64,000 nt of DNA from Comamonas aquatica NBRC 14918. GTDB taxonomy: Bacteria; Pseudomonadota; Gammaproteobacteria; Burkholderiales; Burkholderiaceae_C. Shown here piece by piece: positions 1,758-64,000 of the stretch (the stretch's first letter is position 1; each line of letters opens with the position of its first letter). The position numbers and the translations under genes were made by a program. Location of the stretch: the NCBI RefSeq assembly GCF_000739875.1, contig NZ_BBJR01000034.1, forward strand, positions 62,001-126,000, read 5' to 3'. Below the pieces are notes generated by a model that had not been told where the DNA came from, ran no database searches, and worked only from the letters and a program-made list of their open reading frames with translations.

Positions 1758-2984
1758 GTGGAATTCGTTCTGAATGCTTTGGTGATGGGCTATCGCCCGC
1801 TGTGGAATGCACAGCGCCACTTGGCGGGCGTGCAACTGTTCCTGCACGACACGCCCGACAACCCGGCCGACACGGCCCACCTGCTGCGCATCCTGCAGGA
1901 GATGTGGTCGCCCCACGCCCCCCTGCTGCTGCTGTCGCCGCAATCGCCGGCGCTGCTGCAAGGCCTGCTGGCCCAGATCGGCCCCAACCCCTCCTGGGCG
2001 CTGGAAGTGCGCGCCGAGTGGCTGAACGCCAACGCCCTGCTGCGCGCCCTGACCACGCGCGCCGCCGAAAAGGGCGTGCGCCTGGTCTGGCGCGGCAGCA
2101 TGGAACGCCTGCCCACGGCCCAGGAAGCCAACAACTTCGCCTGCAGCCTGCTGCACCTGGAACCCCAGGATGCGCTGGCGCTGATGCACGCCACGGCCGA
2201 CCAGGCCGTGTCCCAGCGGCTGTCGCTGCTGGAAGGGCAGATGTACGAGGACATCCACAGCCAGGCCCTGGCACGCCGCTGCCTGGAGCACTACCATGCC
2301 AGCGCCATCGCCGGCTGGCCCGACGAGGACGTGCTGCACAAGCTGCGCGGCGCCCGCGTGCTGCACCCCTCGCACGAGCACGTGCTGCGGCTGCTCAAGG
2401 CCGTCGATGCCGACCAGTCGCTGGAAACCTTTGAAGACATCCTCAGCGAGGACCCGCTGCTGGCCTACCGCTTCATGCTGTACGCCAACTCGGCCGCCCT
2501 GGGCGCGCGCAACCCCATCAACTCGCTGCGCCGTGCGCTGGTGATGCTGGGCTACGGCACGCTCAAGGAATGGCTGGGCACCCAGCTGATCCACGCCAGC
2601 CACGAAAAGGACCTGCAGCCCATCCGCCTGTCGATGGTGATGCGCGCCGCGCTGACCTCGCACCTGCTGGATGCCGGCGTCAGCCAGGAGCTGCGCAGCG
2701 AGGTCTACCTGTGCGGCCTGTTCTCACGCCTGCACGAGGTGCTGGACGAGCCGCTGGAGACCACGCTCACGCGGCTGCCGCTGTCCGAGCGCATCCCCCA
2801 GGCCGCCGTGCAGGGCGAAGGCCCGTACGCCCCCAGCCTGCAGTTGGCCCAGGCACTGGAAAGCGAGGACGGCGCCCACGCCATCCGCGCCCTGTGCGAG
2901 GAGCACGAGATCAGCCTGGAGCACGTCAACCGCACCCTGCTGCGTCTGGTGTGCGAATGGCCCAACCAGCGGCCCAGCTGGTAA
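1758..2984 (+). CDS. EAL-like/HDOD two-domain signalling protein with degenerate EAL half
   Basis: The 408-residue protein has a C-terminal HDOD domain (about residues 195-395), seen in DILSEDPLLAYRFMLYANSA and the helix around NSLRRALVMLGYGTLKEW. The first 180 residues have the size and order of the EAL half of YuxH-type EAL-HDOD proteins, but no EAL motif or metal-binding residues are visible, so c-di-GMP hydrolysis is unlikely. HDOD domains act as non-catalytic signalling scaffolds. The chosen GTG start has GGAG about ten bases upstream; an ATG at 1785 is an alternative. It lies directly after flgL, which fits a role in motility or c-di-GMP signalling, but this is inference. A long hairpin with a T-run follows the stop. 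Confidence 0.75.
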   Translation: MEFVLNALVMGYRPLWNAQRHLAGVQLFLHDTPDNPADTAHLLRILQEMWSPHAPLLLLSPQSPALLQGLLAQIGPNPSWALEVRAEWLNANALLRALTTRAAEKGVRLVWRGSMERLPTAQEANNFACSLLHLEPQDALALMHATADQAVSQRLSLLEGQMYEDIHSQALARRCLEHYHASAIAGWPDEDVLHKLRGARVLHPSHEHVLRLLKAVDADQSLETFEDILSEDPLLAYRFMLYANSAALGARNPINSLRRALVMLGYGTLKEWLGTQLIHASHEKDLQPIRLSMVMRAALTSHLLDAGVSQELRSEVYLCGLFSRLHEVLDEPLETTLTRLPLSERIPQAAVQGEGPYAPSLQLAQALESEDGAHAIRALCEEHEISLEHVNRTLLRLVCEWPNQRPSW

Positions 2985-2999
2985 AGCCATCAAAAATCA

Positions 3000-3090
3000 A
3001 AGCAACTGGCGCTCATCTGGCAAGCTTTTCGGATCGAAAATCCCTCAAACACCAGACAAGACCAGCGCCAGCAGCTTCGGTTTTTGACAA
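3000..3090 (+). terminator. Nested-hairpin intergenic element after the HDOD gene
   Basis: Two outer arms about 60 bases apart pair with each other: AAGCAACTGGCGCTCATCT near 3000-3018 and AAGACCAGCGCCAGCAGCTT near 3058-3077, which pairs with mismatches. Between them is an inner inverted repeat around TTTTCGGATCGAAAA. A T-run (GGTTTTT) follows the right arm. The layout is that of a rho-independent terminator and recurs elsewhere in this window with different inner hairpins. Confidence 0.6.
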
Positions 3091-3171
3091 GCTCCCCATG
3101 CCGTCGGTGAAAACGCGCTGGCGCGGCACCCCGCAGCGGCCTACAGTGCGCCCCTGTTGACCCCGCCCGCC

Positions 3172-3771
3172 ATGCCCCTGCACGAATTCACCGCCCTGCT
3201 CATTCTGGCCACGGCCATGAGCTTCACCCCCGGCCCCAACACCACCTTGTCGACCGCCATGGCGGCCAACCACGGCCTGCGCCACAGCCTGCGCTTCGTG
3301 CTGGCCGTGCCCGTCGGCTGGACCCTGCTGCTGGGGCTGTGCGCCCTGGGCGTGGGCGCGCTGATCACCGGCCTGCCCCCCCTGCGCGCGGGCATCAAGG
3401 CCGTGGGCATCGGCTACCTGCTGTGGCTGGCCTGGAAGCTGTCGGGCAGCGGCCAGTTGGCCCAGGCGCGGCCCGCGCAGCTGCAAATCAGTTTTGCCCA
3501 AGGGGTTTTGCTGCAATTCATCAACATCAAGGCATGGTTTTTGGCGTTGACCATCGTCGCAGGATGGGTCGCTGGCCAGGCCAACTTTGCCGAGCGCATG
3601 CTCGTCGTGCTCCCCGTCATGGCGAGCTACGCCTTCTGCAGCAACCTGTGCTACGCCTGCATCGGCGCTGCCTTGCGCCAGTGGCTGGCCCACGGCCGGC
3701 GCCTGCTGTGGTTCAACCGCCTGATGGCCGCCCTGCTGGTGGGCACCGCAGCCTGGATGTTGCGCGCCTGA
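3172..3771 (+). CDS. LysE/RhtB-family amino-acid exporter
   Basis: The 199-residue membrane protein is of the usual LysE/RhtB length (about 200-210). The N-terminal signature ATAMSFTPGPNTTL is the conserved first segment of this family. About six hydrophobic segments are visible, for example LRFVLAVPVGWTLLLGLCALG and AVGIGYLLWLAWKL. The family exports amino acids or related metabolites across the inner membrane using the proton gradient; the substrate cannot be told here. I chose the ATG at 3172; an in-frame TTG at 3157 would add five residues. No partner LysR-type regulator is adjacent. Confidence 0.88.
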   Translation: MPLHEFTALLILATAMSFTPGPNTTLSTAMAANHGLRHSLRFVLAVPVGWTLLLGLCALGVGALITGLPPLRAGIKAVGIGYLLWLAWKLSGSGQLAQARPAQLQISFAQGVLLQFINIKAWFLALTIVAGWVAGQANFAERMLVVLPVMASYAFCSNLCYACIGAALRQWLAHGRRLLWFNRLMAALLVGTAAWMLRA

Positions 3772-3997
3772 AGCGGCGGTGATTTTTTCGGCCCGGCCCC
3801 TGCAAGCCGCGGCGCTTCGCCCCACAATAGCTGCACCGGCGCCGCCGCCCATCCCGTGCCCGACGCCCATTGCCGCAGCGCCCGGCTATGCGTAGTTTCC
3901 GGGTGACACGGCCATGCCCCACAACGGTATGCTCTTTGCACCACGCCTTGTCCGGCACGCGCACAGTGCGCGCGCCGCTTCTAGAGATTGAGTAGTT

Positions 3998-59936: not shown

Positions 59937-59940
59937 GAAT

Positions 59941-59962
59941 TTGGTGGCTGGGACGCTCTCGA
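59941..59962 (-). other. tRNA 3'-end-like remnant, candidate attachment site
   Basis: Read on the minus strand this is TTCGAGAGCGTCCCAGCCACC followed by A. It has the TTCGA of a T-loop and a CCA-type end with a discriminator, immediately followed by a terminator hairpin. The rest of a tRNA is not present to its right, as expected if an element integrated into the 3' end of a tRNA gene. The spacing between the T-loop and the acceptor end is not quite standard, so this is tentative. Confidence 0.4.
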
Positions 59963-60016
59963 AAATCAATTGCAAGCCATTGATTTTATTGAAAAAGCAA
60001 TTTTTTCATCTTCTGA

Positions 60017-60040
60017 GTTGCCCCCAAAGTTGCCCCCAAA
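60017..60040. repeat. Two perfect tandem 12-mers
   Basis: GTTGCCCCCAAA occurs twice in direct succession (60017-60028 and 60029-60040). It lies between the candidate attachment remnant and the first element gene; such short direct repeats are common as integrase arm-binding sites. Confidence 0.8.
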
Positions 60041-61442: not shown

Positions 61443-63014
61443 TCAGGTTATTGGGCCCAACCTATCCAGCCAGCTCTTAATAGCTGGAATGGCGATGCCA
61501 AGAGAGCATGTGGCTACTATCAGCGCAGCAATCGTGAGCAACTCCATCCTTCGCTGAGTCCGGACACTCTCTCTCACGCTCAAAATGTTGGCAAGCTGTT
61601 CAAAGTGCTCTCTTGCTGAATATTCTTCGGCAACAACTCGTGTGGCAAGCCAGTTTGTCCAATTTTTAAGTGCTTCAGCAATTTCTTGTGGCGCAGCTTC
61701 CTTCGACCAAGCAGGTGCAAGAAATTTTGAACATTCGTGCCGGTAAGAGCCTAAGTTTTCTGAACGACTGCACAGCTCTCCTGCCACAGCTGGTGTCCCA
61801 AGAGAACGATCAAAAAACCGCTGAATCTGATCCAGCACCTGAACACACTTGCGACTCCCTAATTTACTGATTTTCAGCGCAGTACGACTAGAGCGAACAT
61901 CCTTGGATACCTCCTTTAGATAAGCAAGTGCAGCGTAATTGCTCAGAACTCCATCAAGGTGTTCATGGCTGTAGCTAACGTATGCATGTCGATCATGTCC
62001 GCCGTAATATTTGACACTTTCATCTGAGACGTCGGCAGCACATAGCGCCACAACCATATGAAACGCTTCATCATCTACTCGGTGACTATCCGCCATCCAA
62101 AGCTGTAAGCCAATACAGCTCGCTGAAGTCCAAACATCGAATCGCGATGGGTTCGCGATAATACGATGCCAGCCCGACCACATGCTTGCCCCATTCCCAA
62201 CTTCTTCAGATAAAGGTCTGGTTGTTTTTGTGGTGAGGAGTTCAGCGGTTGGTAGACGATCAACCGACCGACCGCTGAAGTATCCTGGCAAATTGGTTTT
62301 GAACCAGTTACCAACTAACATCCGCATTTCAGTACGCACTGAATTTATAGCATCTGACTTCAAGTGACCAGGATCTAAATTCTCAATACTCCACCCATGC
62401 CGTGACCGTTTTCGAACTGACTGACGATCTTTATTAAGTTCACGCTCATAACTACGGGCAACCTCTTCCTTTAAAACAAATCCTATAAGAGCACAAGTTA
62501 GTGAGGGCGTTATTTGAATAAATCGAGCCTTAAGGTAGTCAACCTCATTGGGAAGCTGTGCCAGGCTTGGATGCATGAGCCATCGATCCCGATCCTGCGG
62601 CCTAACAACTGCGTCTACGTTGTACCAGCCCCCCCCGTTACCGTACGAGCGTTGATGACGAATCCAATCAAGGGCATTACCAGCACTAGACATTCCACCA
62701 ACAGATGACCACTTCAAACGCCCAAGATGCTCATAAAGGGCCTCTACCTCTGCAGGTCCAAATAGCTCAGCGCCCCATACGACGGGGATACGCAACTCCT
62801 CCTCTTCAGGAACTCGCGATTCAGCGTTAACTTCAGCATCTCGGCGTTTCTCATATTCCCGATCTCTGCTGCCGAATGGGGATGACAGCGTATTAGGAAA
62901 TACACAGTGCACTCGCCACCAAAGCTTATTTATGAAATTTTCTAGGCGACTTTTCTTTGCAAATTGACCGCTTATATCCGATTTCCCTATTTTCTCTGCC
63001 ACAAGAATCTCCAT
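61443..63014 (-). CDS. Unrecognised 523-residue protein with C-terminal membrane anchor (candidate effector)
   Basis: The 523-residue protein is visibly AT-rich compared with the chromosome, a sign of transfer. The N-terminal part is soluble and charged (VPEEEELRIPVVWGAELFGP); the middle has NWFKTNLPGYFSGRS and LEQ/HEPN-like helical text without a motif that I can name, as well as AFHMVVALCAADVSDESVKY. The end holds a single membrane segment, MELLTIAALIVATCSLGIAI at about 493-512, with a short tail. This layout, a large cytosolic part plus a C-terminal anchor, is seen in several phage-defence and toxin effectors, but no such identity is shown. No ribosome-binding site is seen before the ATG at 63014. 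Confidence 0.7.
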   Translation of the reverse strand: MEILVAEKIGKSDISGQFAKKSRLENFINKLWWRVHCVFPNTLSSPFGSRDREYEKRRDAEVNAESRVPEEEELRIPVVWGAELFGPAEVEALYEHLGRLKWSSVGGMSSAGNALDWIRHQRSYGNGGGWYNVDAVVRPQDRDRWLMHPSLAQLPNEVDYLKARFIQITPSLTCALIGFVLKEEVARSYERELNKDRQSVRKRSRHGWSIENLDPGHLKSDAINSVRTEMRMLVGNWFKTNLPGYFSGRSVDRLPTAELLTTKTTRPLSEEVGNGASMWSGWHRIIANPSRFDVWTSASCIGLQLWMADSHRVDDEAFHMVVALCAADVSDESVKYYGGHDRHAYVSYSHEHLDGVLSNYAALAYLKEVSKDVRSSRTALKISKLGSRKCVQVLDQIQRFFDRSLGTPAVAGELCSRSENLGSYRHECSKFLAPAWSKEAAPQEIAEALKNWTNWLATRVVAEEYSAREHFEQLANILSVRESVRTQRRMELLTIAALIVATCSLGIAIPAIKSWLDRLGPIT

Positions 63015-63223
63015 TAATCAATGGTGCAAGATTTATATATAAAACCATTTATTAAAAAACAAAAAATATTCCTTAAACCATTAATTTTTCGGATTTAGCA
63101 TATAAGAAGGGCTGCTCGCACTTTTATACGAGGCATCAAGCGTTGCCATATCAGAAGCTTGGTCAATCACAGGCCCACATCAATTTCCCTACCTACAAAA
63201 TCCTGCATGGGTTCGGGAAAAGC

Positions 63224-63493
63224 GTAACCTCCGTAACCAGCCCTCAAAACCGGCCGCAAACCCGCATGGATGCTAGGTTTCGCAGGTTACAGCTTTCCGT
63301 AACCCAGCGTAACCTAGGTTACGCCTGCAGTCTAAGCTATTGTTTTTATTGATCTTCTATTTTCAGCAAAGTTACTCTGTTTTTTGTACCCAGGTTACGC
63401 TTAGGTTACAGAAAAGGTTACAAAACTCATTTTATGAAAACCTTGTTGCGTAAGTCATTCCCAGTGAGTGAACACTAAGGTTACGCAGGTTAC
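63224..63493. repeat. Array of eleven GGTTAC/GTAACC hexamers, iteron- or operator-like
   Basis: GTAACC starts at 63224, 63233, 63299 and 63309; GGTTAC starts at 63285, 63317, 63393, 63404, 63416, 63479 and 63488. Neighbours within a cluster are 8-12 bases apart, about one helical turn. CGTAACCTAGGTTACG at 63308-63323 is a perfect 16-bp palindrome, and the extended unit GGTTACGCAGGTTAC occurs at 63479-63493. Chance expectation for this hexamer on both strands in 270 bases is well under one. The neighbouring AT-rich stretch makes a replication origin or a multi-site operator plausible. Confidence 0.85.
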
Positions 63494-63611
63494 ACTTTTC
63501 CCGACCCCACCCCGGCATTTTGAAAAAGTCGGTTTTGGGGCCTGAAATCACCCAGTTTGCGGGTTTTCAGGGGGATGTGGCCATGCTGCTGGGCCAAACC
63601 ATGGGGGCAGC

Positions 63612-63633
63612 AAAAAGCCCCGTTTCCGGGGCT
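63612..63633 (-). terminator. Terminator of the gene entering from the right
   Basis: AGCCCCG (63616-63622) pairs with CGGGGCT (63627-63633) around a TTTC loop, preceded on the plus strand by AAAAA (63612-63616), which is a T-run for leftward transcription. It lies 60 bases past the stop of the partial gene and isolates the hexamer array from it. Confidence 0.8.
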
Positions 63634-63693: not shown

Positions 63694-64000
63694 TCAGCCT
63701 CCCACCTCAAACACCCAGCAGCGCACCGACTTGCCCGCGTCATCGCTGGCACTGCTGGTCTTGATGGCGCTTTTGACCACCCGGGCGGCATCCACAAAGC
63801 GGCGCGTCTTGCTGGTGCGCAGCACCTTCTTCAGCTCGGCCAGGGGTGGCACCTGCTGGCGGCGCTCGCTGGCCATCTCCACAAACTCGTTTAGGTTCAC
63901 CGCAATCAAGCCGTGGTCGCGGCTGTGGTTCAGCCGTGGTGCGTTGATAGGCCCGTGAGCGGTGGGCTTGGGAATGCTGTCCAGGTAGTCGAACGCCTCC
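63694..64000 (-). CDS. C-terminal part of an element protein, possibly a phage-type primase/helicase
   Basis: The frame is open from the window edge and ends at 63694, giving about 101 residues of a C-terminus. The text includes NEFVEMASERRQQVPPLAEL and LRTSKTRRFVDAARVVKSAI, ending KSVRCWVFEVGG. This end, a helix-turn-helix-like segment followed by CWVFE, reminds me of the C-terminal domains of phage or satellite primase-helicases, but I could not verify it. The real start lies beyond the window. It is followed by its own terminator. Confidence 0.65.
   Translation of the reverse strand, partial: EAFDYLDSIPKPTAHGPINAPRLNHSRDHGLIAVNLNEFVEMASERRQQVPPLAELKKVLRTSKTRRFVDAARVVKSAIKTSSASDDAGKSVRCWVFEVGG

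What the first reader, a model, noticed from the sequence alone, without database searches (positions are those of the whole stretch)
63224..63493. Dense GGTTAC/GTAACC hexamer array next to an AT-rich stretch: candidate replication origin or multi-site operator
Seen: eleven exact hexamers in 270 bases, both orientations, spaced 8-12 bases within clusters, with a perfect 16-bp palindrome at 63308-63323 and an AT-rich stretch at 63028-63110. The array is insulated by a terminator on one side and a leftward gene start on the other. Known: iterons plus an AT-rich segment are the layout of plasmid and P4-like satellite origins. Inference: this is the origin or master operator of the integrated element, recognised by a protein encoded to the right.
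Basis: partly seen in the sequence, partly recalled or inferred. Interest (0 to 1): 0.75.

Follow-up and report, generated by a model that had tools for sequence, protein, structure and literature searches.

The report
Replication origin of a phage satellite
The dense repeat array is very probably the replication start region of a small phage-satellite island, and a similar 270-base layout, with a repeat 'password' that changes between relatives, turns up beside or far from the matching primase gene in many phages.

Summary
In detail: 11 of the window's 13 GGTTAC hexamers lie in 63224-63493. The array sits 3' of a 942-aa Toprim primase/helicase (phrog_1139), inside a ~11.8-kb tRNA-Phe island with integrase, AlpA and an Ogr/Delta zinc finger; no capsid gene was found in it. 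Six of 53 genomes of the genus carry this primase; all six have the array, three with GGTTAC, three with GATTAC at aligned places. Of nine P2-like phage records with this primase family, eight have a 245-278-bp mixed-orientation array, mostly at a genome end, with other iterons; so have 16 of 26 genomes at a strict (post hoc) score. Four rolling-circle P2-like phages have none. Iteron spacing is shared by 20 of 32 arrays. The modelled initiator matches SCCmec Cch and SaPIbov1 Rep, helicases of a kind that binds iterons downstream of its own gene. Best reading: a SaPI/P4-crr-type origin. Recognition by the primase C-terminus is inferred; a covariation test in this family did not single it out. 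Nothing was tested at the bench.

The parts
63224..63493 (.). Iteron array (putative origin): 11 GGTTAC/GTAACC. Read in primase sense, iterons start at 1+ 10+ 73+ 85+ 96+ 172+ 180- 190- 204+ 256- 265-
63393..63493 (+). Primase-proximal arm: five iterons in one orientation (63393, 63404, 63416, 63479, 63488)
63224..63322 (.). Distal arm: six iterons, mixed orientation (63224, 63233, 63285, 63299, 63309, 63317)
63323..63392 (.). Low-G+C centre between the arms (34%; 63335-63380 is 28%; window 67.5%); candidate melting segment (inferred)
63307..63324 (.). 18-bp perfect palindrome made by two abutting opposite iterons
63213..63222 (+). TCGGGAAAAG boundary box, distal end
   Evidence: six islands aligned; small variations in some
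63495..63504 (-). TCGGGAAAAG boundary box, primase end (inverted copy)
63616..63633 (-). Terminator-like hairpin between primase stop and array
63694..63999 (-). C-terminal 101 aa of the phrog_1139 primase/helicase; the gene runs on outside the window to C70:128522
61443..63014 (-). orf523, gene of the variable cargo slot, no convincing family match
63028..63110 (.). AT-rich stretch (19% G+C) upstream of orf523; probably its promoter region (inference), not a general part of the origin
60016..60038 (+). Doublet AGTTGCCCCCA, repeated at C70:133623; probable integrase arm sites, as annotated in pairs in P4 (inference)
59940..59956 (+). Left attachment-like sequence TTTGGTGGCTGGGACGC, resembling by eye the tRNA-Phe 3' end at the right border

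Best explanation
The array is the cis-acting replication origin region of a small phage-satellite island. The adjacent protein is a fused DnaG-type (Zn ribbon + Toprim) primase and SaPIbov1-Rep/Cch-like initiator helicase. By analogy with SaPI Rep and P4 alpha it binds the hexamer iterons through its C-terminal domain, loads on both sides of the low-G+C centre, melts it and primes synthesis when the island is induced. Shown here: the array, its homologues, their similar length and often shared spacing, their association with this primase family, concerted iteron switching, and the fold match of the helicase. Inferred: binding, melting, initiation, induction by a helper, and which domain reads the iteron.
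For: Primase next to array: phrog_1139 at E=0, 1109 bits. Six of 53 genomes of the genus have the primase and, matching them to the named loci by coordinates, all six have the array: 11 GGTTAC in G000, L011 and L012; 11, 8 and 7 GATTAC in L415, L022 and L023 at aligned positions. A 43%-identical primase (L177, found through its GGTTAC array, so selected) has it too, as have 18 of the 21 loci found from it by protein (L394 ends at the stop, L409 and L413 have none). Of nine phage records fetched (23 match the primase), eight have a 245-278-bp mixed array; ZY1 has none. In 26 of the 48 genome loci I looked 10-45 kb upstream of the primase (downstream in G514 and G525): 16 score <= -11, one -9.3, two -8.9 and -7.8, seven none; 104 Markov sequences reached -6.3, six chunks of our own genome -5.2, but secondary clusters in the same loci -9.9, so -11 was chosen afterwards. 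P2, 186, HP1 and Fels-2: 0 of 4 below -6; P4 as positive control returned its annotated crr and ori. Spacing of the window array recurs at P<=0.05, uncorrected, in 20 of 32 other arrays, five of them close relatives, against 0 of 6 hand-picked arrays of other helicase families. G+C below the surrounding locus in 34 of 34. The full-length model of the L011 protein (pLDDT 88) matches SCCmec Cch 5dgk (E 1.9e-14) and SaPIbov1 Rep 8tch (E 5.9e-12), target-normalised TM about 0.6. In PMC7581432 (passages) SaPI Rep is said to use its C-terminal domain to recognise iterons directly downstream of its gene.
Against: No binding or replication was measured. In this primase family a partial Mantel test did not favour the C-terminus: C-terminus given core -0.11, p=0.89; core given C-terminus 0.30, p=0.001 (n=33). 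A Lys/Arg-versus-Asn code for the switched base, suggested by the islands, fails elsewhere: G512 and G516 have Asn with GTAACC, G517 has Asp with AGTAAC. Seven of 26 genomes and ZY1 gave no array; 2F_1 (6 copies) only equals its Markov maximum and ESSI2 has a second cluster nearly as strong. The spacing match failed P<=0.05 in 12 of 32 arrays. The 101-aa C-terminal model alone gave no significant fold match (best E 1.8). In seven of the eight phages with an array it is not beside the primase.
Confidence: 0.82

Rival explanations
1. Cis-required accessory region only (as P4 crr): the primase binds here but synthesis starts at a second site.
For: The layout primase - terminator - array equals P4 alpha - talpha - crr, and P4 has a separate ori with type 1 repeats about 4.5 kb away.
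Against: Only one array was found in L002, which covers the island; in the SaPI and PICI literature passages the single region 3' of rep is the origin.
Confidence: 0.15
2. Multi-site operator bound by the island's triple-HTH protein (L002 8701-9540) that controls primase or cargo.
For: A three-repeat HTH protein (phrog_4996) is encoded just upstream of the primase; L012 has related multi-HTH genes and L023 an HTH gene in the same place.
Against: L011 has the full array but no tblastn hit to that protein at E<=1e-4; seven phages with the primase have arrays far from it; recurrent 270-bp layout with low-G+C centre.
Confidence: 0.07
3. Packaging signal (cos/pac region) recognised by the helper's P2-type terminase.
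For: In several P2-like phages the array lies in the noncoding stretch on the portal side (Dobby 360-633, portal 2759-3826); the genome holds a P2-like prophage that could be helper.
Against: P2, 186, HP1 and Fels-2 have P2-type terminases but no array; phi3 has it directly 3' of the primase and the islands near it.
Confidence: 0.04

Closest known systems
SaPI/PICI replicon (rep-ori; SaPIbov1 Rep, SCCmec Cch)
   Same: Initiator helicase fold; array 3' of the gene; iteron sets flanking an AT-rich part (PMC6092414 and PMC7581432, passages).
   Different: Helicase fused to a DnaG-type Zn/Toprim primase (SaPIbov1 and SaPI5 primases are of the AEP type, passage); in seven of eight phages of this family the array is remote from the gene; recurrent spacing of 11-13 iterons.
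P4 crr / ori of satellite phage P4
   Same: Gene - terminator - ~270-300-bp array of about ten short repeats in both orientations; same domain order with weak local similarity (E 0.007 and 0.033); similar island size and paired arm-type sites.
   Different: alpha family not found in the island, iteron GGTGAA, crr built as two 120-bp direct repeats, separate ori; spacing match to our array only P=0.057.
DUF5906/D5, VapE and DUF927 phage replication modules
   Same: Arrays of short mixed-orientation iterons, mostly 10-16 copies, directly 3' of the gene in 73 of 77 usable DUF5906 loci; a few examples with VapE and DUF927, those found through the GGTTAC pattern.
   Different: Other protein families; other spacing in the five such arrays tested.

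Membership tests
SaPI/PICI-type replicon | Array immediately 3' of the initiator gene | tested here: met
   Island: stop at 63694, array ends 63493. Seven of eight phage relatives with an array differ.
SaPI/PICI-type replicon | Two oppositely oriented iteron sets flanking an AT-rich region | tested here: met
   Proximal arm 5 of 5 one way, distal arm 4 of 6 the other; centre 28-34% G+C.
SaPI/PICI-type replicon | Initiator with SaPI Rep-type helicase | tested here: met
   Foldseek with the model of the L011 relative: 5dgk E 1.9e-14, 8tch E 5.9e-12.
SaPI/PICI-type replicon | Initiator C-terminal domain reads the iteron | tested here: inconclusive
   Covariation supports it in DUF5906 (partial r 0.451, p 0.0005), not in phrog_1139; in five islands the four best group-separating (overlapping) windows are C-terminal.
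SaPI/PICI-type replicon | rep-ori segment drives autonomous replication | not testable with these tools
   Needs a plasmid maintenance test.
P4-like satellite (components int, psu, delta, sid, alpA, epsilon, alpha; PMC8628076 passages) | integrase, AlpA and delta-type zinc finger | tested here: met
   PF00589, PF05930 and PF04606 above cut-off.
P4-like satellite (components int, psu, delta, sid, alpA, epsilon, alpha; PMC8628076 passages) | alpha, psu, epsilon | tested here: not met
   None hit in the 13 island ORFs scanned against Pfam.
P4-like satellite (components int, psu, delta, sid, alpA, epsilon, alpha; PMC8628076 passages) | sid | not tested
   The paper used a custom profile, which I did not have.
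P2-like (Peduoviridae) prophage | Capsid, terminase and tail genes in the element | tested here: not met
   P2 and Dobby structural proteins hit C79 but not L002 (tblastn E<=1e-5).

The most novel reading that the evidence does not exclude
There is one unrecognised, widespread replicator: a ~270-bp scaffold of 11-13 iteron slots tied to the phrog_1139 primase/initiator and shared by P2-like phages and small satellites, in which the slots change sequence together (GGTTAC to GATTAC, TGTAAC to TGTAAG). These switches would create replication compatibility groups, letting satellite and helper avoid or exploit each other's initiator.
Probability: 0.35. Interest if true: 0.72.

Novelty: new variant of a known kind. 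Interest (0 to 1): 0.58.

Why it matters
It points to the replication origin of a group of P2-like phages and satellites (none of the nine phage records fetched annotates one) and gives a natural series of matched initiators and iteron sets. That makes two questions directly testable: how a self-loading helicase changes its DNA address while keeping eleven sites in step, and whether such changes separate satellites from helpers. [quoted passage not shown] the arrays found here suggest that it is wider.

Tried and rejected
GGTTAC as a universal motif: rejected. Array absent from relatives: first counts (2 of 128 loci with >=5 GGTTAC in 400 bp) suggested this; it was largely an artefact of a fixed hexamer and 10-kb flanks. 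A one-residue recognition code (Lys/Arg versus Asn): rejected as general. C-terminus as proven determinant in phrog_1139: not supported. Triple-HTH protein as obligatory binder: rejected, no hit in L011. AT-rich 63028-63110 as melting site: found there in one of five relatives only. The 23-bp direct repeat as att core: more likely paired integrase arm sites. Class-wide family searches gave too few loci to use. In one search, 25 further loci had clusters of >=7 copies, mostly of G+C-rich hexamers and many probably coding; I set them aside without testing each. Literature: nine full-text searches listed no paper that I recognised as describing this array; six papers were looked at as passages only and subscription papers are not held. 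The Smp131 passages do not mention it. The SaPIbov1 origin paper of 2012 in Plasmid is recalled, not read.

Full report
WHAT IS THERE. The window lies at G000:C70:62001-126000. Eleven GGTTAC/GTAACC hexamers fill 63224-63493 and are far beyond chance. To the right, on the minus strand, a 942-aa protein (C70:125694-128522) ends at 63694. It matches the DNA primase family phrog_1139 over residues 18-939 and has a Toprim domain. A hairpin with a T-run lies between the two (63633-63616; weak by itself). The island further right carries, all on the minus strand, a single-HTH protein, a triple-HTH protein, two ORFs without a convincing match, an Ogr/Delta zinc finger, an AlpA regulator, a PIN/MerR-like pair and a tyrosine integrase next to tRNA-Phe. 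The left border is near 59940, where a tRNA-end-like sequence and a doublet AGTTGCCCCCA occur; the doublet recurs beside the integrase. The island is thus about 11.8 kb (borders inferred).

IN THE GENUS. Six of 53 genomes, ours included, carry the primase. Three have 11 GGTTAC each (G000, L011, L012). The other three looked empty until a hexamer-free scan: L415 has GATTAC x11, L022 x8 and L023 x7, in aligned places, with much the same boundary box (TCGGGAAAAG, small variations) at both ends and a low-G+C centre. In L022, L023 and L415 an additional gene-sized ORF lies between primase and array. One GTAACC position stays GTAACC in all six; in L022 and L023 a terminal iteron also stays GGTTAC, and L023 keeps a further GTAACC, so the switch is not complete there. 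That the genus genomes are the named loci is read from matching coordinates. L011 sits beside tRNA-Phe like ours, L022 beside tRNA-Ser, L023 beside tRNA-Arg.

IN PHAGES. Of 23 phage records that match the primase I fetched nine. Eight have an array of similar length: Dobby GGTAAT x12, Sirocco the same, Smp131 AGGTAA x9, PfPro CTGACA x10, Halomonas 4908 AGGTAA x7, ESSI2 ATCACA x7 and 2F_1 GTTACA x6, all near a record end, and phi3 GGAACA x14 directly 3' of its primase; ZY1 has none. The weak ones are 2F_1, whose 6 copies equal its Markov maximum, and ESSI2 and Halomonas 4908, one copy above theirs; ESSI2 has a second cluster at -8.0 beside its -9.7. This suggested that prophages should hold the array at the end away from the primase. 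In 26 genomes (of the 48 loci) 16 had one at score <= -11, one at -9.3, two weaker, seven none. Second-order Markov sequences reached -6.3 at best (104), six 17.5-kb chunks of our genome -5.2, secondary clusters in the same loci -9.9; the limit of -11 was set after seeing these. Not all 45 kb could be read in each genome because some contigs end early; in G514 and G525 the downstream side was read instead. That each of the 26 is a P2-like prophage was not checked. P2, 186, HP1 and Fels-2, which have a P2 A-type replication protein, had no array; P4's annotated crr and ori were recovered.

GEOMETRY. In primase sense our iterons start at 1+ 10+ 73+ 85+ 96+ 172+ 180- 190- 204+ 256- 265-. Dobby, 48% identical in the primase and with another iteron, has 1+ 10+ 75+ 86+ 97+ 106- 172- 184- 194- 206+ 260- 269-. 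Against random placement, 20 of 32 other arrays fit our slots at P<=0.05, uncorrected (five are close relatives); 12 do not; of six hand-picked arrays of other families none does, P4 crr being closest at 0.057. Array length is 203-285 bp, median 270 (34 arrays), and G+C is below the locus in 34 of 34.

WHO READS THE ITERON. In the DUF5906 helicase family (the best 80 of 262 relatives of one array-bearing phage) 73 of 77 usable loci have an array within 500 bp of the stop, and iteron similarity follows the C-terminal domain once the core is held constant (partial r 0.451, p 0.0005), the core having none left (0.005, p 0.45; 58 distinct sequences). In phrog_1139 the same test points the other way. 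Within five islands the four windows that best separate GGTTAC from GATTAC carriers are the C-terminal ones, and residue 917 is Lys versus Asn, one of eight group-fixed residues, but that residue rule fails in G512, G516 and G517. So recognition by the C-terminus rests mainly on homology.

THE INITIATOR. The full-length model of the L011 protein (87% identical to ours; pLDDT 88) matches SCCmec Cch (5dgk, E 1.9e-14) and SaPIbov1 Rep (8tch, E 5.9e-12); PriRep1 (7pds), the SaPI5 primase-helicase (7ola) and DnaG primase domains follow. I read it as a Zn/Toprim primase fused to a SaPI-Rep-like helicase. The isolated C-terminal domain (pLDDT 79) folds as helices plus a beta hairpin but has no significant match. 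[quoted passage not shown]

HELPER. The same genome holds a P2-like set of structural genes on contig 79 (homologues of Q, P, O, N, M, J, FI, FII and D); no homologue of P2 A was hit in the 38 kb read. A helper role is inference.

CONCLUSION. The array is best read as the origin region of a small satellite, probably dependent on a P2-like phage. It works like a SaPI/PICI origin and is laid out like P4 crr. It is not filed as a P4-like satellite in the published sense because alpha, psu and epsilon were not found. What looks new is the breadth, the recurrent spacing and the concerted iteron switching in this primase family.

Noticed in passing
window 61443-63014; L011 13735-16374; L022 14353-16770: A variable gene slot between array and integrase: ours holds an unknown 523-aa protein (in our island on the far side of the array from the integrase), L011 a PDC-S06 candidate defence ATPase, L022 a DUF4238 protein.
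   Followed up: partly
L002 8701-9540: Protein with three tandem HTH repeats of phrog_4996, followed by a single-repeat gene.
   Followed up: partly
L002 11124-12268: PIN_10 protein with a partner weakly like MerR/DUF433 beside the integrase, toxin-antitoxin-like.
   Followed up: no
G000:C79 about 133-153 kb (L480, L481): P2-like prophage structural genes; possible helper.
   Followed up: partly
L311 compared with L309 and L310: DUF927 helicase 84% identical to the query L286, yet GGCTAC x13 where L309 and L310 have GGTTAC x13: another concerted one-base switch.
   Followed up: no
L322-L328: DUF5906 phages with a mixture of GCAACC and GTAACC iterons, perhaps arrays in transition.
   Followed up: no
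L022 (G441): Primase reading frame interrupted by a stop, in the island whose array keeps 8 exact GATTAC.
   Followed up: no
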